Part shown: piece by piece, positions 32,057 through 46,091 of the stretch
Layout: the number at the start of each line of letters is the position of its first letter
Position numbering within the stretch: the stretch's first letter is position 1
From: Pelomonas sp. Root1444
GTDB taxonomy: Bacteria; Pseudomonadota; Gammaproteobacteria; Burkholderiales; Burkholderiaceae_C
Length of the DNA stretch: 64,000 bases
NCBI RefSeq assembly: GCF_001426885.1
Contig: NZ_LMFP01000003.1
Coordinates: 813,306-877,305 of the forward strand
Direction: 5' to 3'
Translations under genes and position numbers: made by a program
The notes under the pieces: model-generated
What the model saw: the letters and a program-made list of their open reading frames with translations, nothing else
The model's database searches: none
What the model was told of the DNA's origin: nothing

Positions 32057-34651
32057 TCAGTGGTCGTGCCCGGGCCAGCAGGACTGGTGAGCCGCGTCGT
32101 CATCGGCCTGGTGGCCGAGTACGCGCAGCAGCGCCGCCGCCGGGTTGGCCGGCGGCGCGAAGCGCGGGTCCAGGGCCTTGGCGATGGTGTCGGCCAGGCC
32201 CTGCAGATGGGCCCGTCGCGTGCGGTCGCCACGCGCGGCGCCGGCACTGATCACGCCCTTGAGCTCGACCAGTTCCGCCCTCACGCCGGCCTGGCCGTCG
32301 TCCAGGCCCAGCGGGTTGCCGGTGCCGAGGCGGGCGGTCAGGGTGTCGACATGGTGGCGCTGCAGGCTGCGCCGCGCTGCCGGGATGGCCGCGCCGCTGG
32401 CCAGCTCGGTGAACACGGCGCGGCGCAGGTCGGCCAGCAGGTCCTCCAGCCGGTAGGCCCGGGCGCCCAGGTCGGCCTCCTGTGCGATCAGGCGCTGCGT
32501 GCGCGAGGGTGCCAGCAGCTGACGCAGCAGGGTGCGCTGGTTCATGCCGAGCCACAGCGAAGCCTCGGAGGCACTCAGGCGCTGGAGGATGGCCGCGTCC
32601 TGCATCCATTGCGGCGTGGCCAGCGCCTGTTCGGCCAGGAACTTCATCGCCCGCACCTGGCGGTCACGCGACACCGGCTCGGCGATGGCGCCCGGCTGGT
32701 CGTTGTGCTTGTTCTGCACGTCATAACCGCCGATGAGCGCCACGACATGCGACATCTCGCGGGACCACTGCTGCCACGTCCCGCGGTACAGCCGCTCCAG
32801 CAGTTGGTCGTCCTTGCCGTCCTGCGGCACGACAGCGGGCAGCATCTTCACGACGCGCTGCAGGTTCAGCAGGCCCAGGCCGGTGCCCACCACCGCGTCG
32901 GCATCGCCCACCGCCTCGACGTTCTCGCCAAAGTCGCCGCCCTCGGCCTTGGGCGCGCTGAAGCGCAGCCAAGGTGTGGCCTGCTGCTCACGCGCCCACA
33001 GGTTGAGCTGCTGGCGCTCATCCTCGGGCGTCCTGGCGCTGGGGATGGGCGTATAGCCCCAGCGGGCGGCGAAGACGTCGTACGGCCCGATCTTGGGAAC
33101 AAGAAGCGCCGGGTCGACCTGGTCCTGCGGCTGCACGACGTAGTTGAAGCGGCTGTAGTCCATCAGCGACGGCGTGTGCCCCATGGTCTTGAGCCACTCC
33201 GGGTCGCGCAGCTTCGCCACGGGGTACAGGGAGCTGGCCTTCATGTTGTGCGGGAAGCCCAGCGAGTGCCCCACCTCGTGCGTGACGACGAAGGCCACAA
33301 GGTCGCCCATCAGGTCGTCGGGCAGCGGCAGCTTGCGGGCGCGCGGGTCCAGCGGCCCGGCCTGCGTGACGTACCAGTCCTGCTGCAGCTGCATGATGTT
33401 GTGGAACATCACGATGTTGGCGTTCAGGATCTCGCCGCTGCGCGGGTCGGACAGGTGGGGCCCATAGGCATTGGGGATGGGCGACGGCACCCAGCGGATG
33501 ACGCTGTAGCGCACGTCCTCGGGGTCGAACTCGGGGTCCTCCTCGGGCGTCGGATAGGGCCGGGCCTGCACGGCGTTCTTGAAGCCGGCGGCCTCGAAGG
33601 CGGGGTTCCATGCCTCGATGGCCTTCTTCACATGGGGCACCAGCGCGGTGGGGGTGGCCTTGTCGATGTACCAGACGATGGGCTTGACCGGCTCGCTGAT
33701 GGCCGCGCCTGGGTCCTTCTTCTCCAGCCGCCAGCGCGTGATGAGGCGCTCGCGGCGGGCTTCCTGCAGGCCGTCGCCGAAGTCCATGCGGCTGACGCTG
33801 AAGAAGCCCACACGGTCGTCAAACAGGCGCGGCATCATGGGCTGCGCAGGCAGCTGCACGATGTTGTAGGCGAGGTTGAGCGACACGCTGCGCGAGGGCT
33901 GCATCGGCGGCACGATGGTCACGCCCGGCACTGCGGGCATGGGCGCAGGCTGCGGTGCGATGGTGTAGGTCTGCACGGCATCCACCCGCACGCTGCCTGG
34001 GAAGGCCTTCGTCTTGTCGACATAGCTGCGGCTGCTGTCCATCGAGCCGCGCACCATGGCTCGGGCGCTGAAGTCGCCCACCTCCGAAGCGAACAGCCGC
34101 GTGACCTCGATGACCGGCGCACCGCCTTTGCCGTAAGCCTCCACGGGGAAGACAGCCAGGATGGCATCGCGCTGGGACTGCCGGACGGCATCGGCCAGCA
34201 CGTTGTCGGGCGCGGTCACGGCGCTGTGGGACACCAGTTGCAGCAGCACGCGGTTCTGGTTAAGCACGAAGCGCAGCACGTCCTGGTTGATCGTGCGCCC
34301 CAGGTGGTCCTGGCCGGCCGGCACGGCCGTGGCATTGGCCACCATCAGCAGCGGCTGCTCCAGCAGCGTCTTGGGAATCTCGAAGTACAGCTTGTTCTTC
34401 AGGCGGTGGACCGCGAACAGGCCCCGCTGCGTCTTGGCCTCGGCGGTGATGACCTTGTCGAAGGGCTTGGGCTCGCCGGGGTCCGGCAGAGCTGCGGCGG
34501 GCCGGGTTGCGCCCGTGGCGGCGGACGCCGCCGAGGCCGGCGGGGAAGGCGGGGAAGGCGGCGCGGGTGGATCCTGCGCGAATGACTGGCCGGCGGCCAG
34601 GGCGAGGGTCAGCAGCGCGAGCCGGGCACGGCCGGAGGTCTTGTTTTTCAT
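32057..34651 (-). CDS. Exported zinc-dependent metalloprotease (metzincin-like, DUF5117/DUF4953 type)
   Basis: An 864-residue protein with a signal peptide ending near LAAGQSFAQD and a Pro/Ser/Ala-rich spacer. The catalytic motif THEVGHSLGFPHN (HExxHxxGxxH) lies near residue 465, and a candidate Met-turn SLMDYSRFNY follows about 45 residues later. Segments FDKVITAEAKTQRGLFAVHR and PIVWYIDKATP fit the large bacterial family of zinc-dependent metalloproteases with DUF5117/DUF5118 regions. It probably acts in the periplasm or outside the cell on proteins. ATG 34651 has AGGG six bases upstream and is preferred to the ATG at 34657. The C-terminus is His-rich (GHDH). Confidence 0.87.
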   Translation of the reverse strand: MKNKTSGRARLALLTLALAAGQSFAQDPPAPPSPPSPPASAASAATGATRPAAALPDPGEPKPFDKVITAEAKTQRGLFAVHRLKNKLYFEIPKTLLEQPLLMVANATAVPAGQDHLGRTINQDVLRFVLNQNRVLLQLVSHSAVTAPDNVLADAVRQSQRDAILAVFPVEAYGKGGAPVIEVTRLFASEVGDFSARAMVRGSMDSSRSYVDKTKAFPGSVRVDAVQTYTIAPQPAPMPAVPGVTIVPPMQPSRSVSLNLAYNIVQLPAQPMMPRLFDDRVGFFSVSRMDFGDGLQEARRERLITRWRLEKKDPGAAISEPVKPIVWYIDKATPTALVPHVKKAIEAWNPAFEAAGFKNAVQARPYPTPEEDPEFDPEDVRYSVIRWVPSPIPNAYGPHLSDPRSGEILNANIVMFHNIMQLQQDWYVTQAGPLDPRARKLPLPDDLMGDLVAFVVTHEVGHSLGFPHNMKASSLYPVAKLRDPEWLKTMGHTPSLMDYSRFNYVVQPQDQVDPALLVPKIGPYDVFAARWGYTPIPSARTPEDERQQLNLWAREQQATPWLRFSAPKAEGGDFGENVEAVGDADAVVGTGLGLLNLQRVVKMLPAVVPQDGKDDQLLERLYRGTWQQWSREMSHVVALIGGYDVQNKHNDQPGAIAEPVSRDRQVRAMKFLAEQALATPQWMQDAAILQRLSASEASLWLGMNQRTLLRQLLAPSRTQRLIAQEADLGARAYRLEDLLADLRRAVFTELASGAAIPAARRSLQRHHVDTLTARLGTGNPLGLDDGQAGVRAELVELKGVISAGAARGDRTRRAHLQGLADTIAKALDPRFAPPANPAAALLRVLGHQADDDAAHQSCWPGHDH

Positions 34652-34756
34652 TCGCATCCCTGGGTTGTACGCACCGCAGGGTACGCGGCTGCGATGTTAG
34701 GCACGCCTGTTACCGGCAACGCTCACCGGCGTGAGATTTTCGCGGGCTCGGCAACT

Positions 34757-34790
34757 TCACCAGGCCTTGAAGCGCCCCGTGATGTGCTGC
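34757..34790 (-). pseudogene. Remnant of a GH8-type 3' end, left flank of the ars cassette
   Basis: On the minus strand this reads ...QHITGRFKAW followed by TGA, nearly the same as the last residues of the GH115-GH8 protein (HVTGRFKAW then TAG) encoded at 40426. The DNA shares 19 identical bases (34759-34777 with 40428-40446) and about 28 of 32 overall, and some of the differences are synonymous. No further glycosidase coding is visible upstream of these residues. The simplest reading is a duplicated or displaced gene end produced when the ars cassette came in between. Confidence 0.6.
34759..34777 (+). repeat. Direct repeat, left (ars cassette boundary)
   Basis: ACCAGGCCTTGAAGCGCCC, 19 bp, repeated exactly and in the same orientation at 40428-40446. 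The two copies bracket arsR to the MFS gene, about 5.67 kb. The right copy is the 3' end of an intact gene, as is usual for attachment sites of integrating elements, but no integrase gene lies between the repeats. Confidence 0.65.
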
Positions 34791-34881
34791 GTCGGACGGC
34801 TGGCGCGGTTGCGCCGGGCCATCACCCATTCGCAGGGTGGGAATGCTTGCATCATTTCCATATTTCCATGAAACTCGAATC

Positions 34882-35199
34882 ATGGAAGAAGCCGTAGTCA
34901 TCAAGAGCCTTGCCGCGCTGGCCCAGCCGCTGCGGCTGCAGGTCTTCCGCGCGCTGGTCGTCGTCGGCGACGCCGGCCTGACCCCCGGCGCCATCCAGGA
35001 GGCCCTGGGCGTGGCCCCGGCGACGCTGTCTTTCCACCTGAAGGAACTCGTCAACGCCGGCCTGGTGACCCAGGAGCGCGCCAGCCGCAACCTGATCTAC
35101 CGCGCCCACTACGCGCACATGAACGCCGTGCTCGGCTACCTGACCGAGAACTGCTGCCAGGGTGCCGCCTGCACCACCACGCCGCCCTGCGGCTGCTGA
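34882..35199 (+). CDS. arsR: ArsR-family arsenic-responsive repressor
   Basis: A 105-residue winged-helix protein: KSLAALAQPLRLQVFRAL, then the recognition helix APATLSFHLKELVNAGLV and the wing (SRNLIYRAHY). The C-terminus is rich in Cys (NCCQGAACTTTPPCGC), which may bind As(III); in several ArsR subgroups the inducer site is formed by C-terminal cysteines. It should repress this operon until arsenite binds. The ATG at 34882 (MEEAVVIKS) fits the family start. It is the first gene after the left repeat; arsC follows after 8 bp. Confidence 0.92.
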   Translation: MEEAVVIKSLAALAQPLRLQVFRALVVVGDAGLTPGAIQEALGVAPATLSFHLKELVNAGLVTQERASRNLIYRAHYAHMNAVLGYLTENCCQGAACTTTPPCGC

Positions 35200-35207
35200 T
35201 CCAAGCC

Positions 35208-35714
35208 ATGACCACCCACGTCCTCATCCTCTGCACCCACAACTCCGCCCGCAGCGTCCTCGGCGAGGGCATGCTCAACCACTGGGCCCGCAAGCTCGGC
35301 AAGGACGTCGAGGCGCACAGCGCCGGCAGTGCGCCGAGCGGCCGCATCAACCCGTTCGCGCTCGAGGCGCTGCGCAACGCCGGCGTCGACACCGCGGGCT
35401 GTCACAGCAAGAGCTGGGACGCATTCAGCCAGGCGGGTGCGCCGCCGCTGTCAATCGTCATCACCGTCTGCGACAGCGCGGCGGCGGAGCAGTGCCCGGT
35501 GTTCTTTGGCGGCACGGCCGGCCAGCCGGTGAAGGTGCACTGGGGCTACCCCGACCCGTCCAACGCCGAGGGCGGCGACGCGGGCAAGCGCCGCGCTTTC
35601 GAGCTGACCCGCCAGGCCCTCGGCTACCGCATGTTGCAGCTGCTGCAGCTGCCGTTCGAATCGCTGGATCGCCCGGCGCTGCAGGGGGCGTTGAGCGACA
35701 TCGGCAACAGCTGA
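35208..35714 (+). CDS. arsC: Arsenate reductase, low-molecular-weight phosphatase type
   Basis: A 168-residue protein with the phosphatase loop LCTHNSARS (C-x5-R, catalytic C9) at the N-terminus, the segment AHSAGSAPSGRINPFALEAL and, later, HWGYPDPSNAEG with the catalytic aspartate. This is the LMW-PTPase-like ArsC class, which reduces arsenate to arsenite using thioredoxin or glutathione/glutaredoxin. C104-like cysteines are seen in VITVCDSAAAEQCPVF. It sits 10 bp before acr3. Confidence 0.93.
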   Translation: MTTHVLILCTHNSARSVLGEGMLNHWARKLGKDVEAHSAGSAPSGRINPFALEALRNAGVDTAGCHSKSWDAFSQAGAPPLSIVITVCDSAAAEQCPVFFGGTAGQPVKVHWGYPDPSNAEGGDAGKRRAFELTRQALGYRMLQLLQLPFESLDRPALQGALSDIGNS

Positions 35715-35724
35715 GGCGCCCGCC

Positions 35725-36801
35725 ATGAGCACCACGGCCCTGCCCGCATCGGCGCCCGCACCCGCGCCGATGAGCGTCTTCGAGCGCTACCTGACCGTCT
35801 GGGTCCTTCTCTGCATCGTCGTCGGCATCGCCCTCGGCCAGCTCCTCCCCGGGCCGTTCCAGGCCGTCGGCCGCATGGAGTTCGCCAAGGTCAACATCCC
35901 GGTCGGCCTGTTGATCTGGGTGATGATCATTCCGATGCTGCTGAAGGTCGACTTCAGCGCGCTGCACCAGGTCAAGCAGCATTGGCGCGGCATCGGCGTC
36001 ACGCTGTTCATCAACTGGGCCGTCAAGCCCTTCACGATGGCCTTCCTTGGCTGGCTGTTCGTCCGGCAGGTGTTCGCGCCCTACCTGCCGGCCGGCCAGC
36101 TCGACAGCTATGTCGCCGGCCTGATCCTGCTGGCCGCGGCGCCCTGCACGGCGATGGTCTTCGTGTGGAGCCGGCTCACCCACGGCCACCCCCTGTTCAC
36201 TCTCAGCCAGGTGGCGCTGAACGACACCATCATGGTGTTCGCCTTCGCGCCCATCGTGGCGCTGCTGCTCGGCCTGTCATCGATCACCGTGCCGTGGGAC
36301 ACGCTGCTGACCTCGGTCGTGCTCTACATCGTGGCCCCGGTGGCGATCGCCCAGGTCTGGCGCAAGGCCTTGCTGGCCAGGGGGCAGGCCGCCTTCGACG
36401 CGGCGCTGGAGAAGATCGGGCCGCTGTCGATCGCCGCGCTGCTCGCCACGCTCGTGCTGCTGTTCGCGTTCCAGGGCGAGGCGATCCTCAAACAGCCGCT
36501 CGTCATTGCGATGCTGGCCGTGCCCATCCTCATCCAGGTGGCCTTCAACTCGGCGCTGGCCTACTGGCTCAATCGCAAGCTGGGCGAGTCCCACAGCGTC
36601 GCCTGCCCCTCCGCGCTGATCGGCGCCAGCAACTTCTTCGAACTGGCCGTCGCCGCCGCCATCAGCCTGTTCGGGTTCGAGTCCGGCGCCGCCTTGGCCA
36701 CCGTCGTCGGCGTGCTGATCGAAGTGCCCGTGATGCTGCTGGTGGTTCGCGTCGTGAACCGCAGCAAGGCCTGGTACGAGAGCGGCGTCCATGCCCGCTG
36801 A
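35725..36801 (+). CDS. acr3: Acr3-type arsenite efflux permease
   Basis: A 358-residue, roughly 10-helix protein of the Acr3 (BART) family. The signature AAPCTAMVFVWSRL contains the conserved cysteine needed for As(III) transport, and VNIPVGLLIWVMIIPMLLKV and GASNFFELAVAAAISLFG are also typical. It exports arsenite across the inner membrane with the proton gradient. An alternative start at 35770 (MSVFERYLT) would remove a Pro/Ala-rich N-terminus. Confidence 0.94.
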   Translation: MSTTALPASAPAPAPMSVFERYLTVWVLLCIVVGIALGQLLPGPFQAVGRMEFAKVNIPVGLLIWVMIIPMLLKVDFSALHQVKQHWRGIGVTLFINWAVKPFTMAFLGWLFVRQVFAPYLPAGQLDSYVAGLILLAAAPCTAMVFVWSRLTHGHPLFTLSQVALNDTIMVFAFAPIVALLLGLSSITVPWDTLLTSVVLYIVAPVAIAQVWRKALLARGQAAFDAALEKIGPLSIAALLATLVLLFAFQGEAILKQPLVIAMLAVPILIQVAFNSALAYWLNRKLGESHSVACPSALIGASNFFELAVAAAISLFGFESGAALATVVGVLIEVPVMLLVVRVVNRSKAWYESGVHAR

Positions 36802-36921
36802 GCCCTTGAACCCGCGCGCGGCCTGACCCGGCAATCGCCGGCGCACGGGGCCCAGGCCCCGTTTCTTTGATTCATGTAGTTGCGATTGACAACCAACCGC
36901 ACGGAACGGAACATGCAGCCA

Positions 36922-36934
36922 GATAGTTGCTATC
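36922..36934. promoter_or_regulatory. Palindrome before the marR-type gene
   Basis: GATAG-TTG-CTATC, a perfect 5-bp inverted repeat with a 3-bp centre, nine bases before the ATG of the MarR-family gene. A second element GTTG-N7-CAAC lies about 35 bases further upstream. Autoregulation by the MarR-type protein, starting a second transcript inside the ars cassette, is likely but not shown. Confidence 0.45.
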
Positions 36935-36943
36935 CACCACCAG

Positions 36944-37444
36944 ATGACCGCGTCCGCCCCCGGCAGCCTGTTGCGCGAAGTCGCGCGCCTGTACACCCGC
37001 GCCCAGCGCGTCGTGGCCGATTGCTGCCGCACCACCAGCACCCAATGCCACCTGCTGACCGAGCTGGGGCGCTCCGGGCCGCTGCCGCTTTCGGAGCTGG
37101 GCACGCGGGTCAGCCTGGAGAAGAGCTGGGTGTCGCGCGCGGTCGAGGCCATGGCAGCCCGTGGATTGGTGACCAAGGAGCCGAACCCGCAAGACGCAAG
37201 GAGCTGGCTCGTCACGCTCACCGCCGACGGCGAACGCACCGTCCGTGAGCTGAACCAGACCCTCGACGAGCATGCCCGGCAGTTGCTGGCGTCACTGAGC
37301 GAGCGCGAGCGCGCCGCCGTCGAGACCTCGTTGCTGACGCTCCTGAACGCCTTGCGCGAAGACGCGGCGGCCAACTGCTGCCTGCCGCCGCCGTCGCCTG
37401 CAGCGCCTCGGGAGCCCACCCAGGATTCCAAACCATGTTGCTGA
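36944..37444 (+). CDS. MarR-family regulator with cysteine pairs
   Basis: A 166-residue winged-helix protein: LTELGRSGPLPLSELGTRVS, the recognition helix LEKSWVSRAVEAMAARGLV and the wing PNPQDARSWLVTLT are MarR-like. Unusual are the cysteines: DCCRTTSTQC in the dimerisation helix, NCC after the last helix and CC as the last two residues. Within an ars operon they suggest As(III) sensing. The 3' end overlaps the start of the GNAT-flavoprotein gene by 10 nt, so both are coupled. The operator candidate is just upstream. Confidence 0.85.
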   Translation: MTASAPGSLLREVARLYTRAQRVVADCCRTTSTQCHLLTELGRSGPLPLSELGTRVSLEKSWVSRAVEAMAARGLVTKEPNPQDARSWLVTLTADGERTVRELNQTLDEHARQLLASLSERERAAVETSLLTLLNALREDAAANCCLPPPSPAAPREPTQDSKPCC

Positions 37445-39264
37445 ACCCCACTTCCCTCTCCCTGCGCCAGGCCGGCGCCGCCGACTGGCCGGCCGTGGAA
37501 GCCCTGCTGCTGGCCAACAAGCTGCCGACCGAGGGCGCGCAGGCCCACCTGAGCACCTACCTGCTGGCCACCCACAATGGCGAGGTCATCGGCTGTGCCG
37601 GCGCCGAGGTCTATGGCAGCGTGGCGCTGCTGCGCTCGGTCGCCGTGGCGCCGGGCTTGCAGAAGCAGGGCATCGGCCGCCTGCTCGTCGAGCGCCTGCT
37701 GCAGGAGGCCGCGGCGCGCGACATCGCGACCCTCTACCTGCTCACCGTCACCGCCCCCGAGTACTTCGCGCAGTACGGCTTCAAGCGCATCAAGAGCGAG
37801 GCCGCGCCGGCAGCGCTGAAGGCCTCGGCGGAGTTCCAGGGCGCCTGCCCCGCGTGTGCGGCGCTGATGGCACTGACACTGCGCGAGGCGCCGGCCGGCG
37901 ACGCCACGCTGCCGGTCGCGGTGCTGGGCGCCGGGCCGGTGGGGCTGGCCGCGGTGGCGCAGCTGATCGAGCGCGGCCTGCCCTTCGTCGCGCTGGAGGC
38001 CGGCGCCGAGGTGGGCGCCAGCCTGCTGGACTATGGGCACGTCGCGCTGTTCTCACCCTGGCAGTACGACGTCGACCCGGCGATGGCGCGGCTGCTCGCG
38101 CCCGCCGGCTGGGCGCCGCCGCCCGCGGCCGAGTTGCCCACGGCCGGCGAGGTGGTCCGGCGCGTGCTCCAGCCCTTTGCCGCACTGCCCACCGTGGCCG
38201 CCTCGCTCAAGCTCGGTGCCCGCGTGCAAGCCGTCAGCCGCGAGGGCTTCGACAAGGTCAAGAGCGCCGGCCGCGACCGGGCCGCCTTCGTGGTGCGCTA
38301 CACGCAGGGCGGCGCAATGCGCGAGCTGCGCGCCCGCGCCGTCATCGACGCGACCGGCACCTGGAACCAGCCCAACCCGCTCGGCGCCGATGGCCTGCCC
38401 GCGCGCGGCGAAGCCGAGGCGCGCGACCGCATCTTCTACGGCATCCCAGACATCGCCGGCGCGCTGCGCAGCCGCTACGAGGGCAGGCGCACGCTGGTCG
38501 TCGGCGCCGGCCACTCGGCGGCCAACGCACTGCTGGCGCTGGCCGAACTGGCCAAGGCGTCTCCGGGCACGCGCCTGGCCTGGGCGGTGCGCTCGCCCGC
38601 GCTGCAGCGCGTCTTCGGCGGCGGCACGGCGGACGCCCTGCCCGCCCGCGGCGCATTGGGCGCCGCGCTGCGCCGGCTGCGCGACGGCGGCGCGCTGGAG
38701 TTCTTCAGCGGCCTGCGCATCACGGCCATCGAGCGCGTCGGCCCCCGGTTGCGCGTGAGCGGCCTGGACAACGACCAGCGGCCGGTGGTCGTCGACGGCA
38801 TCGACGAGATCATCTGCGCCACCGGCCAGCGGCCCGACCTGACGCTCACCAGCGAGTTGCGCCTGAAGCTCGACCCCTGGCTGGAATCCACCGAGGCGCT
38901 GGGCCCGCTGATCGACCCCAACCTGCACAGTTGCGGCACCGTGCGCCCGCACGGCCACCGCGAGCTGGCCCATCCCGAGCCGGACTTCTACACCGTGGGC
39001 GTGAAGAGTTATGGCCGCGCGCCGACCTTCCTGATGGCCACCGGCTTCGAGCAGGCGCGCTCGGTCGTCGCCGCGATCGCCGGCGACCTGGCGGCGGCGG
39101 ACCGCGTGGAGCTGGACCTGCCCGAAACCGGCGTGTGCTCGACCGAGTCGGGCCCCGCGAGCGAGGCCACGGGCTGCTGCGGGCCAGCGACGGAAGACAA
39201 GGTGGCCCTGCCCAAGCCAGGCTGCGCACCCAAGCCCGCGGCCGCCGCGCGCTGCTGCGGCTGA
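37435..39264 (+). CDS. Fusion of ArsN2-like N-acetyltransferase and FAD/NAD(P)-binding oxidoreductase
   Basis: A 609-residue two-domain protein. Residues 1-150 are a GNAT acetyltransferase (acetyl-CoA loop LRSVAVAPGLQKQGIGRLLV; end FQGACPACAALMALTL) of the ArsN2 type found in arsenic operons. From residue 160 there is a flavoprotein with a dinucleotide motif VAVLGAGPVGLAAV, a second one TLVVGAGHSAANALLAL near 355, and ATG-type segments (VIDATGTWNQPNP, IICATGQRPDL), as in flavin-binding monooxygenase-like proteins. The tail is Cys-rich (GCCGP ... PGC ... ARCCG), possibly binding metalloid. It may modify organoarsenicals such as arsinothricin; the substrate is unproven. An MFS gene follows after 2 bp. 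Confidence 0.85.
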   Translation: MLLNPTSLSLRQAGAADWPAVEALLLANKLPTEGAQAHLSTYLLATHNGEVIGCAGAEVYGSVALLRSVAVAPGLQKQGIGRLLVERLLQEAAARDIATLYLLTVTAPEYFAQYGFKRIKSEAAPAALKASAEFQGACPACAALMALTLREAPAGDATLPVAVLGAGPVGLAAVAQLIERGLPFVALEAGAEVGASLLDYGHVALFSPWQYDVDPAMARLLAPAGWAPPPAAELPTAGEVVRRVLQPFAALPTVAASLKLGARVQAVSREGFDKVKSAGRDRAAFVVRYTQGGAMRELRARAVIDATGTWNQPNPLGADGLPARGEAEARDRIFYGIPDIAGALRSRYEGRRTLVVGAGHSAANALLALAELAKASPGTRLAWAVRSPALQRVFGGGTADALPARGALGAALRRLRDGGALEFFSGLRITAIERVGPRLRVSGLDNDQRPVVVDGIDEIICATGQRPDLTLTSELRLKLDPWLESTEALGPLIDPNLHSCGTVRPHGHRELAHPEPDFYTVGVKSYGRAPTFLMATGFEQARSVVAAIAGDLAAADRVELDLPETGVCSTESGPASEATGCCGPATEDKVALPKPGCAPKPAAAARCCG

Positions 39265-39266
39265 GC

Positions 39267-40439
39267 ATGGCGAGCGCGCGGCTGCGGGTGGTCACGACGC
39301 TGGGCATCGCCCAGACGCTGGCCTGGGCGTCGTCCTACTACCTGCCGGCGCTGCTCGCGCGGCCGATGGCGCGCGACCTCGGCGTGTCGGAGCCCACCGT
39401 CTTCGCGGCGTTCTCCGCGGCGCTGGTGGTCTCGGCCGTCATCGGGCCGCAGGCTGGCCGGCGCATCGACCGCTGGGGCGGCCGGCCGGTGCTGATGGCG
39501 ACGAGCGCGCTGTTCGCGCTCGGGCTGGCGGCGATGGCGCTCGCCACCGGGCCGGTCAGCCTGTTCGCGGCCTGGCTGCTGATGGGCGTCGCGATGGGCA
39601 GCGGGCTGTACGAGGCGGCGTTCGCGTCGCTGGTGCGGCTGTACGGCCACGACGCGCGCGGCGCCATCACCGGCATCACGCTGATCGCCGGCTTCGCCAG
39701 CACCGTCGGCTGGCCGCTCACGGCGGCGCTGGAACACGCGCTCGGCTGGCGCGGCGCCTGCTGGGCCTGGGCCGGCCTGCACCTGGCCATCGGCCTGCCG
39801 TTGAATGCCTGGCTGCCCAGGATCCCGGCGCCTGTCGAACGCAGCGATCCCTCGGTTGCGCCTGCAGCCGAGCCGGCGGCGCCGCCGCTGATGACCTCGG
39901 TGATGCTGGCCTGGGTGTTCGCCGTGACCTGGTTCATCAGCACGGCCATGGCCGCCCACCTGCCGCGGCTGCTGGACGCGGCCGGGTCGGCGCCGGCGGC
40001 GGTCATCGCCCTGAGCGCACTGGTCGGGCCGGCGCAGGTGGCGGGGCGGCTGCTGGAGTTCGGCCTGCTGCGGCGGCTGCACCCGCTGCATTCGGCGCGC
40101 GTGGCGGCGCTGATGCACCCGCTGGGCGCCGCACTGCTGGCGCTATTGGGCGCGCCGGCGGCCGCGGCGTTCGCGCTGCTGCATGGCGCGGGCAACGGCA
40201 TCCTGACCATCGCCAAGGGCACGCTGCCGCTGGCGCTGTTCGGGCCCAGCGGCTACGGCCACCGGCAAGGCCTGCTGATGCTGCCCGCGCGGCTGGCACA
40301 GGCGTTGGCGCCGTGGCTGTTCGGCGTGCTGCTGGCCGGCTTCGGCACCGGCGTGCTGTGGTTCTCGGCCGGCCTGGCGCTCAGCGCCCTGCTGGCGCTG
40401 CTGGCCATCCGCATGGCGGCGCGGCCTACCAGGCCTTGA
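39267..40439 (+). CDS. MFS exporter of the arsenic cassette
   Basis: A 390-residue, 12-helix major facilitator with the loop 2-3 motif GPQAGRRIDRWGGRPVL. It begins two bases after the flavoprotein stop and so belongs to the same transcript. MFS exporters next to ArsN-type or flavoprotein genes are thought to export organic or modified arsenicals; here that is inference from position. The last codons and the stop lie inside the right direct repeat, and the gene overlaps the convergent GH115-GH8 gene by 14 nt. Confidence 0.85.
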   Translation: MASARLRVVTTLGIAQTLAWASSYYLPALLARPMARDLGVSEPTVFAAFSAALVVSAVIGPQAGRRIDRWGGRPVLMATSALFALGLAAMALATGPVSLFAAWLLMGVAMGSGLYEAAFASLVRLYGHDARGAITGITLIAGFASTVGWPLTAALEHALGWRGACWAWAGLHLAIGLPLNAWLPRIPAPVERSDPSVAPAAEPAAPPLMTSVMLAWVFAVTWFISTAMAAHLPRLLDAAGSAPAAVIALSALVGPAQVAGRLLEFGLLRRLHPLHSARVAALMHPLGAALLALLGAPAAAAFALLHGAGNGILTIAKGTLPLALFGPSGYGHRQGLLMLPARLAQALAPWLFGVLLAGFGTGVLWFSAGLALSALLALLAIRMAARPTRP

Positions 40440-43400
40440 AGCGCCCGGTCACGTGCAGCATGGCCATGAACTGCAGCAGGCCGTCGTAGTAGCGCCATTG
40501 CCCGCTGGGCGGCTCCAGCGCCCACAGGTCGTCGACGAAGCGCGTGGCCAGCGGCTTGCCCACCAGCAGCGCCGCGACCGCGTTGCTGGCCATCAGCCCC
40601 TTGGAGGGCTCGTCGTTGAGCGGCGTGCCGTCCAGGCGGAACAGGTGCTGATAGGGCTTGGGCCCGAGTGACGCGAAGAAGCCCAGCAGCCGGCCGCTCA
40701 GCTCGGCCGCGGCCGGGTGGCGGCCCCACCAGGCCTGGTCGACGCTCCAGTTCACCGCCGTGCGGAAGGCGTCATAGCGGAAGTCCTCATGGCCCTCGTG
40801 CACGCGCGGGCGGCCATCGAACTCGGCGTAGTCCGGCGTGAGGCCGGTCTTGGGGTGCGCGGCTTTGTGGAAGTAGGCGCGGCTGACCTCCGCGATCTCG
40901 CGCCAGCGCTGGCTGTCCTCGGGGCGGCCGCGCTGCGCCCAGAGCTCGTAGAAGGCCGGCAGGTGGTAGGACGGGTCGCTGAAGCCGGCCGCGTTGCCGA
41001 TGGGCACGAACACGACCTGCTTGTGCTGCGCCGAGAACATCGAGCGCACGCCGTCGACGACGCCGCCGTTCATGCGCTCCTTGTGCAGCATCACGTCCAG
41101 CAGCGCCTGGGCCTGCGCGGTGTAGTCGTAGATGCCGGGGCCGTTGCCCCAGCGGCTGGCGGCCATCAGCAGCGCGGTGGCGATGTACTCCTCGCCGTCG
41201 GAGGCGGGCACGGCATCCTTGTTGCAGCCGCTGGGCTGGCACTGCCAGCGGAAGTAGCCGGCGCGCGGCCCCGAGCGGTAGCGCATGTGGGTCCAGGCCC
41301 AGTTCCACAGCGCATCGAACTCCGTGCGGCGGCCCATCTGCACCGCGACCATCATGGCGTAGGACATGCCTTCGCTGCGCACATCGGCGTTGCCGACGTC
41401 CAGCACGTACGACGCCGGGCCGTCGGGCGTCGGCGCCGCAGCGTAGACGATGCGCTGGTCGGCACCGCCCTCGAACAGCGCATGCCAGTAGCCGGCCAGC
41501 TTGGCCTCGATGGCGGCCTCGCCGATGTCCGGCCGGATCTCGCGCAGCAGGTTGCGGTACTGCCCGGTGACGGCCGCACCGCTCGCCACCGGGCCGGCCT
41601 GGGGCGCCAGCATCAGCTTCTGCAGCAGCGCGTTGTCGTCCAGCCGCCAGACCTTGATGACGTGCCGGCCGGGCTTCACGCCAGTGAAGCGGGCCTGCAG
41701 CACGAACTCGTTGTCGCGGACCGCGCGCGCCCAGTCCTTTTCCTCGCGGCGCGACTCGGGGCCCGCCGTGGGCACGAGGTGCAGGTTGAGCTCCTGCGGC
41801 GGCCGGTCGTCGAGGGCGACGGCCAGGCGGATGCCACCGGCGTTGCGCGTGTCCAGCGTGGGCAGCATGTGCAGCGCCAGGTTCATGTCGCCGTCGTGCG
41901 TGGTGTCGACGTCGTACTCCAGCCGCACATCGTCGGCCAGCGTGGTCGGCGCGCGGCCCTGCGGCAGCGCGGTGACGGCGCCCAGGCCGTGGCCCAGATT
42001 CGGAATGGCCGTCCAGTTCAGGCCCTTGCCGTTGACGGCGCGGCTGAAGCGCGGCGCCTCGATGGTGATCCCCTTTGCAGCCGCGACCGGCGTGGCGGCT
42101 TCGAGCTGCTTCTGCACCGCGGCGGCATCGGCCTGGCCGGCGACGCGCTGCACGGCGGGCATGATGTTCTTCGCCGGCTGCTGCCAACTGGTGTAGCCGA
42201 TGTGGACCTGCAGCATCATGCCGGCCCACTTGCCGCCGTGGATGGCGTGGTACTGGTCGCTGAGGGCCTGGTCGCGCTGGATGGCGGCCTCGGCGCGGTC
42301 GGCAAACACATTGGCGCGCGCATCGCCGGCCGCGGCCAGCTTGCGGTTCCAGGCCACCGCGTCATAGAGGCGATAGAGGTTGGCCAGCGCCAGCACCGGG
42401 TGCTCGACGAGCTGGAAATAGGCGTCGAGCTGGTCCGGCCGCAACCCCTGCTTGATCTTCGCGACGCGGGCCTCCAGCGCGGCCCACTCGGCCACGCGGC
42501 GGCCGAAGTCGCCACCGTCCAGCGCCTCGGGCGACGCCGCGCCGAGCGCGAAGCTGCCGGCATCGATCAGCTCGGGCTTGCGCCGCGCCGCGTACTGGCT
42601 GAAGCGGGTGACGGCCTCGCCGATGTCGGCCGCGTGCGCGGGCCCGAACGTGCGTGCCGCCCAGTCCTGCGGGTAGGCCGCCAGCGCGGCGGGCGTCATG
42701 CGGGCCGGGGCCCAGGCCATGTCGAGGAAGAAGCTGATCGGGAACTCCATCGGCTTGATGTCGCCGACATTGACGATCCACAGCGCGTCCGCGCCGCGCT
42801 CGTGCGCGAGGTTCATCTGCTGCCAGGTCTTCTCGATCTGGTTGGTGTTGAGCCACTTGTAGTTGCGCGGCCCGCCGACGTAGTCGAAGTGGTAGTAGAC
42901 GCCGTAGCCGCCGGGGCGCTTGGCACCCGCGTCCGGCAAGCGGCGGATCTGGCCCCAGTTGTCGTCGGCGAACAGCAGCAGCACGTCGTCGGGCACCTTC
43001 ATGCCTTTGTCGTAGTAGTCCTGCACCTCCTTGTAGAGGGCCCACATCTGCGGCGTGCGCTCGGCGGGCTGGCGGGTCACGTCGGCAATGATCCGGCGCT
43101 GGTCCTTGACGATGCCTTCGAGCAGCGCCGTCGCCGTGCCCTCGCTCATCGGCTCGTCGCCGTCGCCGCGCATGCCCAGCGTGACGAGGCTGTCGAAGGG
43201 CTTGCCATCGGGCCGGCCCATCATGCGCTGGATGCCGCCGCGCCAGAACTCGCGCAGCTTCTCGCCGTTCTTCGTGTAGTCCCAGGCACCGCCTTTGACG
43301 CGGCCCCACTCGTCATGGGCGCGCATCATGGGCTCGTGGTGCGAGGTGCCCATGACGACGCCCATCTCGTCGGCCAGGACCATGTTCTTCGGGTCGTCGG

Positions 43401-44187
43401 CGTTGAAGGCGCGCGGCTGCCACATCGCCGGCCAAAGGTAGTTGCCACGCAGCCGCAGGATCAGCTCGAACACGTGCGCGTAGAACGCCGAGTTGGTGCC
43501 GCCGAAGCGCGCCTGCGCCCAGGTGCTCAGCGCCGGCGCCTCGTCGTTGATGAAGATGCCGCGGTACTTGACGCCCGGCTGGTCGGCCCGCGCGCCGGCG
43601 GTGACGAAGACGTCGGCCTGCTTGGCCGTCGGCACATCGGCCCACCAGTGCCAGGGGCTGACGCCGATGCGCGCCGACAGGTCGTAGGTGCCGAACACCG
43701 CGCCGCGGCGGTCCGTGCCGACGATGACGAGAGCGCGGTCCACACCGGGGAAGGGTTGGTCGACGACGGCCTGCCTGTAGCCTTCCCACTGTCCTTTCAG
43801 ATCGGCGGCCTTGAGCTTGCCCTGTTTCACCAGCGCGTCGATCGCAGCGCTGCGGCCCAGCTCACCGATGACGACCAACTCGCGCGGCGCGCCGGCGAGC
43901 TGGCCCCGCAGCGCCGCCGGCCGGCCGGACACGCGCTCCAGGTCGGCCACGAAACTGCGCCCTGCATGCTGCAGCGCCGGGTCCGCGCCGGCCTCGACGA
44001 GGACCGCGGCCGGCTGGCCGGCGCGAACCAGAGCGAAACTGCCGCCCATGTCGCGCGTGCAAACCGATGCCGGCGTGTCGCAAGCCAGCGCTGCACCCGT
44101 GAGCAGCTGGAACGCCAGCGCCCCCAACAGCTTGAACCGGGAGATGGGTCGGCTGAACGGCCTGGCGGCCTCGGGAACGATGTGCAT
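40426..44187 (-). CDS. GH115 alpha-glucuronidase fused to GH8 xylanase, exported
   Basis: A 1253-residue protein. A signal peptide ends near TGAALACDT. Residues about 30-860 form a GH115 xylan alpha-1,2-glucuronidase ([50 protein letters not shown], and a strand-rich domain after [12 protein letters not shown]). From about 872 to the end is a GH8 catalytic domain ([20 protein letters not shown] with acid Glu, [36 protein letters not shown] with base Asp), like reducing-end xylanases. One chain would thus remove glucuronate from polymeric or internal positions and cut the xylan backbone. ATG 44187 or 44211 may be the start. Divergent from the dehydratase operon. Confidence 0.9.
   Translation of the reverse strand: [1253 protein letters not shown]
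40428..40446 (+). repeat. Direct repeat, right (ars cassette boundary)
   Basis: Exact copy of 34759-34777. Here it encodes on the minus strand the last six residues (GRFKAW) of the GH115-GH8 enzyme, and on the plus strand the end of the MFS gene. Sequence to the right is the intact glycosidase gene, and sequence to the left is the cassette. The stop codon differs between copies (TAG here, TGA on the left). Confidence 0.65.
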
Positions 44188-44287
44188 GGTTCGAAATGGT
44201 TGCGCGATCATTCCCAGTCTAGCGGCTCGCCTCCGGACCGACGATCCTGGGGGAAACGCTGAGCAGGGCACCCCGTCACCGTCACTA

Positions 44288-44301
44288 TGATAGCGATAAC
44301 A
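44288..44301. promoter_or_regulatory. LacI/ROK-type operator candidate
   Basis: TGATAGCGATAACA, a near-palindrome around CG, between the divergent GH115-GH8 and pentonate dehydratase genes. It resembles the TAGCGCTA sites at aguA/xynB but with A replacing C. It could be used by the LacI-family regulator or by the ROK regulator downstream. Confidence 0.4.
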
Positions 44302-44363
44302 ACATTGCCACTCCTTCGTGCCGGTCCGCAAGGCGTCGGCCGCGCTTCGGCCGCAGGGCGCCC

Positions 44364-46091
44364 ATGACCAAGAAACTCCAAGACCTGCGCAGCGCACGCT
44401 GGTTCGCGAAGGACGATTTCCGCAGCTTCGGCCACCGCAGCCGCGTGCTGCAGATGGGCTATGGCCCGGAAGACTTCATCGGCAAGCCGGTGATCGCCAT
44501 CGTCAACACCTGGAGCGACGCCAACCAGTGCCACACCCATTTCAAGCAGCGGGTGGAGGACGTCAAGCGCGGCATCCTGCAGGCGGGCGGCTGGCCGCTG
44601 GAGCTGCCGGCCATCTCGCTGAGCGAAAGCATGGTCAAGCCGACCTCCATGCTTTATCGCAACTTCCTGGCGATGGAGACCGAAGAGCTGCTGCGCAGCC
44701 ACCCGGTGGACGGCGCCGTGCTGATGGGCGGCTGCGACAAGACGACGCCGGGCCTGCTGATGGGCGCGCTCAGCATGGGCCTGCCCTGCATCTACCTGCC
44801 CGCCGGCCCCATGCTGCGCGGCAACTGGCGCGGCCAGGTGCTGGGCTCGGGGTCGGACGCCTTCAAGTACTGGGACGAGCGCCGCGCCGGGCGCCTCTCC
44901 GACCAGGCCTGGGCCGAAATGGAAGCCGGCATCGCGCGCAGCCACGGCACCTGCATGACCATGGGCACGGCGGCCACGATGATGGGCATCGCCGAAGCCA
45001 TCGGCTTCACGCTGCCGGGCGCCAGCAGCATCCCGGCGCCGGATGCCAACCACGTGCGCATGTCGGCCGAATGCGGCCGGCGCATCGTGCAGATGGTGTG
45101 GGAGGACCTGACACCCGCGCGCATGCTCAGCGCCGGCAGCTTCGCCAACGGCATCGCCGTCGCGATGGCCATGGGCTGCAGCACCAACGCCATCATCCAT
45201 CTGGTGGCCATCAGCCGCCGCGCCGGGCTGCCCGTCACGCTGGACGACTTCGACGCGGCCAGCCGCCACGTCGGCGTCATCGCCAACATCCGGCCCAGCG
45301 GCGACCGCTACCTGATGGAAGACTTCTTCTATGCCGGCGGCCTGCCGGCCATGATGAAGGTGATGGCGGCCAAGCTGGACCTGGCCGCGTTGACCGTCAA
45401 CGGCCGCACCGTCGGCGAGAACATCGCAGGCGCCGAGGTCTTCAACGACGACGTCATCCGCCCGCTGGACAACCCGATCTACGCCGAGGGCGCACTCGCC
45501 GTGCTGCGTGGCAACCTGGCGCCCGACGGCGTCGTCATCAAGCCCAGCGCCGTCGCACCGCACCTGCTCAAGCACACCGGCCGCGCGCTCGTCTTCGACG
45601 ATTACCCGAGCCTGAAGGCCGCCGTGGACGACGCGGACCTGGACGTGACGGGCGACGACATCCTCGTGCTGCGCAACGCCGGGCCCAAGGGCGCGGGCAT
45701 GCCGGAGTGGGGCATGCTGCCCATCCCGACCAAGCTGCTCAAACAAGGCGTGACCGACATGCTGCGCCTGTCCGACGCCCGCATGAGCGGCACCAGCTAC
45801 GGCGGCTGCCTGTTGCACTGCAGCCCCGAAGCCTTCGTCGGCGGGCCGCTGGCGCTGGTCAAGACCGGCGACCGCATCACCGTCGACGTGCCGGCGCGGC
45901 GCATCCACCTCGAAGTCAGCGATGAAGAGCTGGCCGCGCGCAAGGCGGCGTGGACACCACCGCCCCCACGCTATGAGCGCGGCTACGGCTGGATGTTCGG
46001 CCGCCACATCCTGCAGGCCCATGAGGGCTGCGACTTCGACTTCCTCGAAACCCAGTTCGGCGCCCCGGTGCCCGAGCCAGTGATTTACTGA
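44364..46091 (+). CDS. IlvD/Edd-family pentonate (aldonate) dehydratase
   Basis: A 575-residue iron-sulfur dehydratase. Three cysteines sit where sugar-acid dehydratases ligate [2Fe-2S]: C56 (DANQCHTHF), C124 (GGCDKTTPG) and C197 (SHGTCMTMG); the metal-binding and C-terminal segments (LSDARMSGTSYGGC) are normal. The pattern is closest to L-arabinonate/D-xylonate dehydratases rather than to IlvD itself. It would give a 2-keto-3-deoxy-pentonate. It is followed by an RraA-like gene after 1 bp and a ROK regulator, with no branched-chain amino acid genes nearby, which supports a role in sugar-acid catabolism. Confidence 0.88.
   Translation: MTKKLQDLRSARWFAKDDFRSFGHRSRVLQMGYGPEDFIGKPVIAIVNTWSDANQCHTHFKQRVEDVKRGILQAGGWPLELPAISLSESMVKPTSMLYRNFLAMETEELLRSHPVDGAVLMGGCDKTTPGLLMGALSMGLPCIYLPAGPMLRGNWRGQVLGSGSDAFKYWDERRAGRLSDQAWAEMEAGIARSHGTCMTMGTAATMMGIAEAIGFTLPGASSIPAPDANHVRMSAECGRRIVQMVWEDLTPARMLSAGSFANGIAVAMAMGCSTNAIIHLVAISRRAGLPVTLDDFDAASRHVGVIANIRPSGDRYLMEDFFYAGGLPAMMKVMAAKLDLAALTVNGRTVGENIAGAEVFNDDVIRPLDNPIYAEGALAVLRGNLAPDGVVIKPSAVAPHLLKHTGRALVFDDYPSLKAAVDDADLDVTGDDILVLRNAGPKGAGMPEWGMLPIPTKLLKQGVTDMLRLSDARMSGTSYGGCLLHCSPEAFVGGPLALVKTGDRITVDVPARRIHLEVSDEELAARKAAWTPPPPRYERGYGWMFGRHILQAHEGCDFDFLETQFGAPVPEPVIY

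What the first reader, a model, noticed from the sequence alone, without database searches (positions are those of the whole stretch)
34757..40447. Arsenic cassette inserted at the 3' end of a glycosidase gene, with 19-bp direct repeats
ACCAGGCCTTGAAGCGCCC occurs at 34759-34777 and 40428-40446. The right copy is the end of the GH115-GH8 gene; the left copy still reads HITGRFKAW-stop on the same strand, with some synonymous differences beyond the core. The cassette in between has six arsenic-related genes and no integrase. This looks like site-specific insertion that rebuilt the gene end, as elements do at tRNA genes, but here at a glycosidase gene and without a visible recombinase.
Basis: partly seen in the sequence, partly recalled or inferred. 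Interest (0 to 1): 0.72.

Follow-up and report, generated by a model that had tools for sequence, protein, structure and literature searches.

The report
Arsenic operon beside displaced gene tail
An arsenic-resistance operon has been spliced in right after a sugar-cutting enzyme gene, next to a 30-odd-base scrap of such a gene's end; the repeats look more like a scar of ordinary recombination between related bacteria than like a dedicated insertion site.

Summary
The 19-mer is at both stated places, with no other exact copy in the 5.89 Mb genome; similarity extends to 28 of 32 bases. Five same-genus relatives (Roseateles/Pelomonas) show the predicted empty site: metalloprotease beside the GH115-GH8 gene, one gene end, no ars. 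So ars DNA was inserted. The site-specific reading is not supported: the 19-mer is conserved GH8 coding sequence (exact in 3 of 15 relatives); each of 15 GH8 loci has one copy and none of 10 other ars loci has one; no recombinase family was hit; G001 has ars at this place without a repeat. The two copies differ as much as gene ends of different species: the left is 1 base of 32 from G015's end and joins the native metalloprotease spacer; the right is 1 of 32 from G013's. Best reading: the left copy is the tail of a resident GH8 allele, left behind when ars DNA entered by homology-anchored recombination. Donor, route and replacement of the right-hand gene are not shown. Side finding: the genus's usual ars site has lost its ars genes here.

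The parts
32057..34657 (-). Metalloprotease (DUF4953 met-zincin, DUF5117, DUF5118), left neighbour; directly follows GH8 in five relatives
   Evidence: Pfam; synteny
34658..34756 (.). Native metalloprotease-GH8 spacer, long form otherwise seen only in G015 among the five empty-site relatives
   Evidence: alignment
34757..34790 (-). Left copy: displaced tail of a GH8 allele (QHITGRFKAW-TGA); 19-mer at 34759-34777
34882..35199 (+). arsR (ATG at 34882; ORF also open from GTG 34837)
35208..35714 (+). arsC, LMWP-type arsenate reductase
   Evidence: below NCBIfam cut-off
35725..36801 (+). acr3, arsenite efflux transporter
   Evidence: over cut-off
36944..37444 (+). MarR-family regulator, conserved with the next two genes in the genus
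37435..39264 (+). ArsN2 acetyltransferase fused to a flavin-monooxygenase-like (ArsO-like) part
39267..40439 (+). MFS exporter (ArsK-like); its C-terminus runs into the GH8 tail, whose sequence supplies the last residues and the stop
40426..40459 (-). Right copy: tail of the intact gene (HVTGRFKAW-TAG); 19-mer at 40428-40446
40426..44397 (-). GH115-GH8 gene, right neighbour
   Evidence: Pfam

Best explanation
An ars operon was captured between the GH115-GH8 gene and the metalloprotease gene by homology-anchored recombination with incoming DNA, without a dedicated recombinase. A GH8 gene end was the shared anchor. The left copy is the last 31-34 bp of a GH8 allele still attached to its native downstream spacer; the right copy belongs to the intact gene, whose allele differs. 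Shown: insertion, empty sites, one tail per relative locus, homology of both copies to GH8 tails, divergence at between-species level, no recombinase family hit, MFS frame running into the GH8 tail. Inferred: that the copies come from different lineages, that GH8 was the anchor, and the route: either one-sided homologous joining with illegitimate joining at the other end, or a single crossover of a circle bearing a short GH8 tail.
For: Five empty sites with one tail. One tail in each of 15 GH8 loci, none in 10 other ars loci, so the repeat belongs to the place and not to the cargo. The copies differ by 4 of 32, the mean among 15 relatives being 4.5; left is 1 from G015, right is 1 from G013; drift simulations reach such closeness in 0.00026 and 0.00005 of 200,000 draws. 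The left copy's outer flank is the native spacer in its long, G015-like form. The MFS gene is cut at the GH8 stop. G001 has ars beside GH8 in the same orientation, so a donor of that layout is conceivable. Papers: HFIR and, more often, duplications through single crossover of partly degraded circles were seen in E. coli (PMC3240628, abstract and passages); a like displacement was proposed for T6SS modules (PMC5361080, passages).
Against: No donor with the same junctions was found. GH trees do not settle the window's place: grouping with G008+G015 is not rejected (p-AU 0.18), so the right gene may be resident. Windowed identity shows no clear breakpoint. HFIR usually deletes about as much resident DNA as it inserts and is rare; here nothing is seen to be deleted and some bases are duplicated, which fits the single-crossover variant better. 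The drift simulation ignores coding constraint and overstates the contrast. The 32 bases are few.
Confidence: 0.5

Rival explanations
1. Illegitimate insertion that duplicated about 32 bp of one and the same GH8 allele (staggered break), followed by drift of one or both copies.
For: Geometry fits a target duplication; the right copy is coding and the left is not, so they can diverge; GH trees allow a resident right gene.
Against: Each copy lies 1 of 32 from a different relative's gene end, rarely reached by random change (0.00026 and 0.00005 of 200,000, no selection modelled).
Confidence: 0.25
2. Remnant of a longer duplicated GH8 copy (tandem duplication or single crossover of a larger segment) that decayed, with ars beside it.
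For: The left copy is a true GH8 tail.
Against: 34779-34882 shows no match to the GH genes fetched; the only hits are 21-bp matches elsewhere in the own genome; no relative has a second GH8 tail.
Confidence: 0.1
3. Site-specific insertion at the GH8 tail by a recombinase acting in trans or since lost, the element carrying a gene-end mimic.
For: Direct repeats at both borders, gene end intact, single copy in empty sites; gene-end targeting by integrases is known (recalled).
Against: No recombinase family hit; repeat absent from 10 other ars loci and from G001's junctions; no other insert with a second tail in 15 relatives; no exact match in viral contigs; the cassette would end inside its own last gene.
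Confidence: 0.08
4. Source variant: the operon was relocated within this lineage from the genus's usual ars site.
For: The usual site (PHB depolymerase - ars - Trp halogenase in G008, G002, G012) has 2.36 kb of non-ars DNA here. ArsC and MarR trees pair the window with G008 at SH-aLRT 87 each; both lack the acetyltransferase gene after MFS.
Against: Acr3 here instead of the genes found between ArsC and MarR at the other loci; ArsC-Acr3 DNA is closest to other genera at about 84%; ArsR, ArsN2O and MFS trees leave the window unplaced.
Confidence: 0.07

Closest known systems
Homology-facilitated illegitimate recombination (HFIR) and single crossover of degraded circles (PMC3240628, abstract and passages)
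   Same: Homology at one end only, no dedicated recombinase; the single-crossover products carry a duplicated gene segment
   Different: Seen there in the laboratory; HFIR products usually carry a deletion, not seen here; donor unknown here
Displacement of resident genes at T6SS effector loci of Vibrio cholerae (PMC5361080, passages)
   Same: Conserved gene as anchor, new module put in, a resident piece left downstream
   Different: There a whole immunity gene remains; here only 31-34 bp
Integrative elements at 3' ends of protein-coding genes (recalled; listing only)
   Same: Insertion at a gene end with direct repeats and an intact gene
   Different: No recombinase found, repeats imperfect, not carried by the cargo elsewhere
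Burkholderiales ars operons (PMC3954881, passages)
   Same: arsR, arsC and acr3 units with extra genes, many arrangements (68 forms among 223 operons), taken there as sign of rapid movement
   Different: This exact gene order was not checked in that paper; its figures are not held

Membership tests
Site-specific integrative element | Integrase or other recombinase in or beside the element | tested here: not met
   No such family among 8 + 10 proteins; a factor in trans not excluded
Site-specific integrative element | Direct repeats at both borders, one copy in the empty site | tested here: met
   (imperfect, 28 of 32)
Site-specific integrative element | Repeat travels with the element or is used by other cargo | tested here: not met
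   0 of 10 other ars loci; no second tail beside any of 15 GH8 ends
Site-specific integrative element | Excision or circular form | not testable with these tools
   Needs DNA of the strain
HFIR | Homology anchor on one side shared by donor and recipient | tested here: inconclusive
   GH8 is the candidate; donor not found; GH trees unresolved
HFIR | Insertion coupled with deletion of resident DNA | tested here: not met
   Spacer and gene tail are kept and 31-34 bp are duplicated; single-crossover duplication is the better fit
HFIR | No dedicated recombinase | tested here: met
Transposon or IS-borne insertion | Transposase | tested here: not met
   No such family among the proteins
ars operon | arsR, arsenate reductase and arsenite efflux pump in one unit | tested here: met
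   ArsR, ArsC and Acr3 in a row; ArsC below the NCBIfam cut-off

The most novel reading that the evidence does not exclude
The conserved tail of this glycosidase gene is a true attachment site: an ars element with a recombinase acting in trans inserts there using a gene-end mimic, and the ars insertion at the same place and orientation in G001 is a second, repeat-less outcome of the same targeting.
Probability: 0.06. Interest if true: 0.6.

Novelty: new member of a known kind. Interest (0 to 1): 0.3.

Why it matters
It shows how a direct repeat that looks like an integrase site can be the scar of gene-end displacement, and suggests a simple test: compare each copy with the orthologous gene ends of sister species. 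It also shows that in one bacterial genus the same kind of ars operon sits at several unrelated places and can be missing from its usual one.

Tried and rejected
Attachment-site idea: the repeat or the left border was looked for in the own genome, beside relatives' GH8 ends, at other ars loci, in viral contigs and in plasmids; only GH8 ends and chance-level matches came back. Mosaic breakpoint in the GH gene: windowed identities and trees gave no clear switch. In one search the rows of G009, G014 and G011 were extracted in a wrong frame and are not used. The rpoB rows were taken with an antisense reading frame; the rpoB tree and test are discarded and were redone. There the window lies in a 100/99 clade with G002, G008, G012 and G016, its sister unsettled (one search had G008 at 94). 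rpoB rejects G008+G015 (p-AU 0.0003) while the GH gene joins them at 100/100, so GH genes are exchanged in this genus. Neighbouring genes (dehydratase, RraA-like, TonB end) did not place the window either. The paper search for Roseateles and ars listed 12 of 286 papers, none of which names Roseateles in the counts shown (listing only); this is no proof of absence from print. One search was seen as a listing only.

Full report
Observation. The two 19-mers are where stated and are the only exact copies in the genome. The similarity is 28 of 32 bases. The right copy is the end of a GH115-GH8 gene on the minus strand; the left copy reads QHITGRFKAW-stop. Between them lie ArsR, ArsC, Acr3, MarR, an ArsN2-ArsO-like fusion and an ArsK-like MFS gene (ArsC, ArsO and ArsK matches are below the curated cut-offs). 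No recombinase or transposase family was hit by the cassette's six proteins and its two neighbours or by ten further ORFs around; not every flanking ORF was scanned. The G+C content of the cassette is like that of its flanks.

Relatives. Of 60 genomes searched, the own one included, 18 hold the GH protein: the own genome, 16 of the same genus and G057 of another family. I compared 15 of the 16 same-genus relatives; G010 (47% identity, end shown) was set aside. Downstream of GH8 the metalloprotease follows directly in five (G012, G013, G015, G018, G019) and after an extra ORF of 338 aa in G005; a TonB-like gene follows in G003, G006, G009 and G011, and after other genes in G016; other genes follow in G002, G008 and G014; ars genes follow in G001. 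The place is variable in general. Each of the 15 loci has one GH8 tail; the window's genome alone has two (stretches of about 3 to 14 kb, up to 9 mismatches of 32, at which level matches that look like chance also appear in L091, L136, L139, L146 and at window 6975).

What the copies are. The exact 19-mer is the GH8 end of G008, G013 and G015, so it is conserved coding sequence. Left and right copies differ by 4 of 32; the mean among the 15 relatives is 4.5. The spacer on the left copy's outer side aligns with the native metalloprotease-GH8 spacer and has the long form otherwise seen only in G015 among the five compared; its middle part is poorly alike. Four random changes to one copy rarely yield something within 1 base of a relative (0.00026 from the right copy, 0.00005 from the left, of 200,000 draws each); this ignores coding constraint and overstates the contrast. 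I read the left copy as the tail of a resident allele and the right gene as a different allele. Whether the right gene was replaced is not shown: identity windows show no clear breakpoint and GH trees leave the window unplaced. Grouping with G008 alone (p-AU 9e-6), G014 (0.002), G012+G002 (0.008), G016+G002+G012 (0.002) and the rpoB clade of five (1e-65) is rejected; with G008+G015 (0.18), G016 (0.27), G001 (0.125) or G016+G001 (0.43) it is not.

The right border. At other loci the MFS protein has a different C-terminus. It is followed by an acetyltransferase gene (arsN1-like, a name recalled) in G002, the second copy of this genome, G012, G005, G018 and G001, not in G008 and G009; G016's contig ends before (family hit for the G005 gene only). 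In the window the MFS frame runs into the GH8 tail, which supplies its last residues and stop. An element ending inside its own last gene is not what a self-contained integrative element looks like.

The ars operon in the genus. Ten other ars loci (one of them this genome's second copy, one, G003, only a fragment) do not carry the tail. In G008, G002 and G012 the operon lies between a PHB depolymerase and a tryptophan halogenase gene, aligned on both sides with contig C1 of this genome (families); G005 and G018 look alike from ORFs and upstream sequence. In this genome those two genes stand 2.36 kb apart with no hit to ten ars-operon proteins or to the window's cassette DNA. Its second operon lies on contig C28 near a P-type ATPase and two MerR regulators. 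In G001 ars lies between TonB and GH8 in the same orientation, on two contigs that both end in the ArsN2-ArsO gene, so the link is inferred; by comparison with G003 and G006 the insertion is within about 10 bp of the GH8 stop and left no tail copy. Gene trees do not group G001's ars genes with the window's. Of 399 family genomes, 252 match the cassette DNA at 1e-50. The ArsC-Acr3 part is closest to other genera and the MarR-ArsN2O-MFS part to this genus, so the cassette is itself a mosaic.

Mechanism. The best fit is homology-anchored capture: incoming DNA with ars beside a GH8 end recombined at that gene and left the resident tail outside. Laboratory work gives two routes (PMC3240628, abstract and passages): HFIR, rare and usually with a deletion, and single crossover of partly degraded circles, which duplicates a gene segment and fits the duplication here better. 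A like displacement was proposed for T6SS modules, whose authors also call HFIR rare (PMC5361080, passages). A plain target duplication with later drift is the main rival. The site-specific reading fails two tested features (recombinase; repeat travelling with cargo).

Consequence. In the empty-site relatives GH8 and the metalloprotease are co-directional and close, so the insertion, in the opposite direction, may have split a transcription unit and put the metalloprotease divergent from arsR; this is inference.

Verdict. A real, well-delimited insertion with an instructive scar, most likely from ordinary recombination; new member of a known kind, modest interest.

Noticed in passing
L225 3408-5764 (G000 contig C1): The genus's usual ars site, between PHB depolymerase and Trp halogenase genes, holds 2.36 kb of non-ars DNA in this genome; two ORFs there have no Pfam match.
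   Followed up: partly
L086 (G000 contig C28:51000-67000): A second ars operon in the same genome, ArsN2-ArsO protein 84% identical, near a P-type ATPase and two MerR regulators.
   Followed up: partly
L052 and L092 (G001): Another species has ars genes at the same GH8 3' end in the same orientation, without the repeat and with an acetyltransferase gene between MFS and GH8; link across two contigs inferred.
   Followed up: yes
GH115-GH8 gene of G008 and G015 (L144, L145): The GH gene joins G008 and G015 at 100/100 while rpoB rejects that pair (p-AU 0.0003), a sign of GH gene exchange between species.
   Followed up: partly
window 40426-40439: Convergent genes overlap by 14 bp: the MFS stop lies inside the last codons of the glycosidase gene.
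   Followed up: yes
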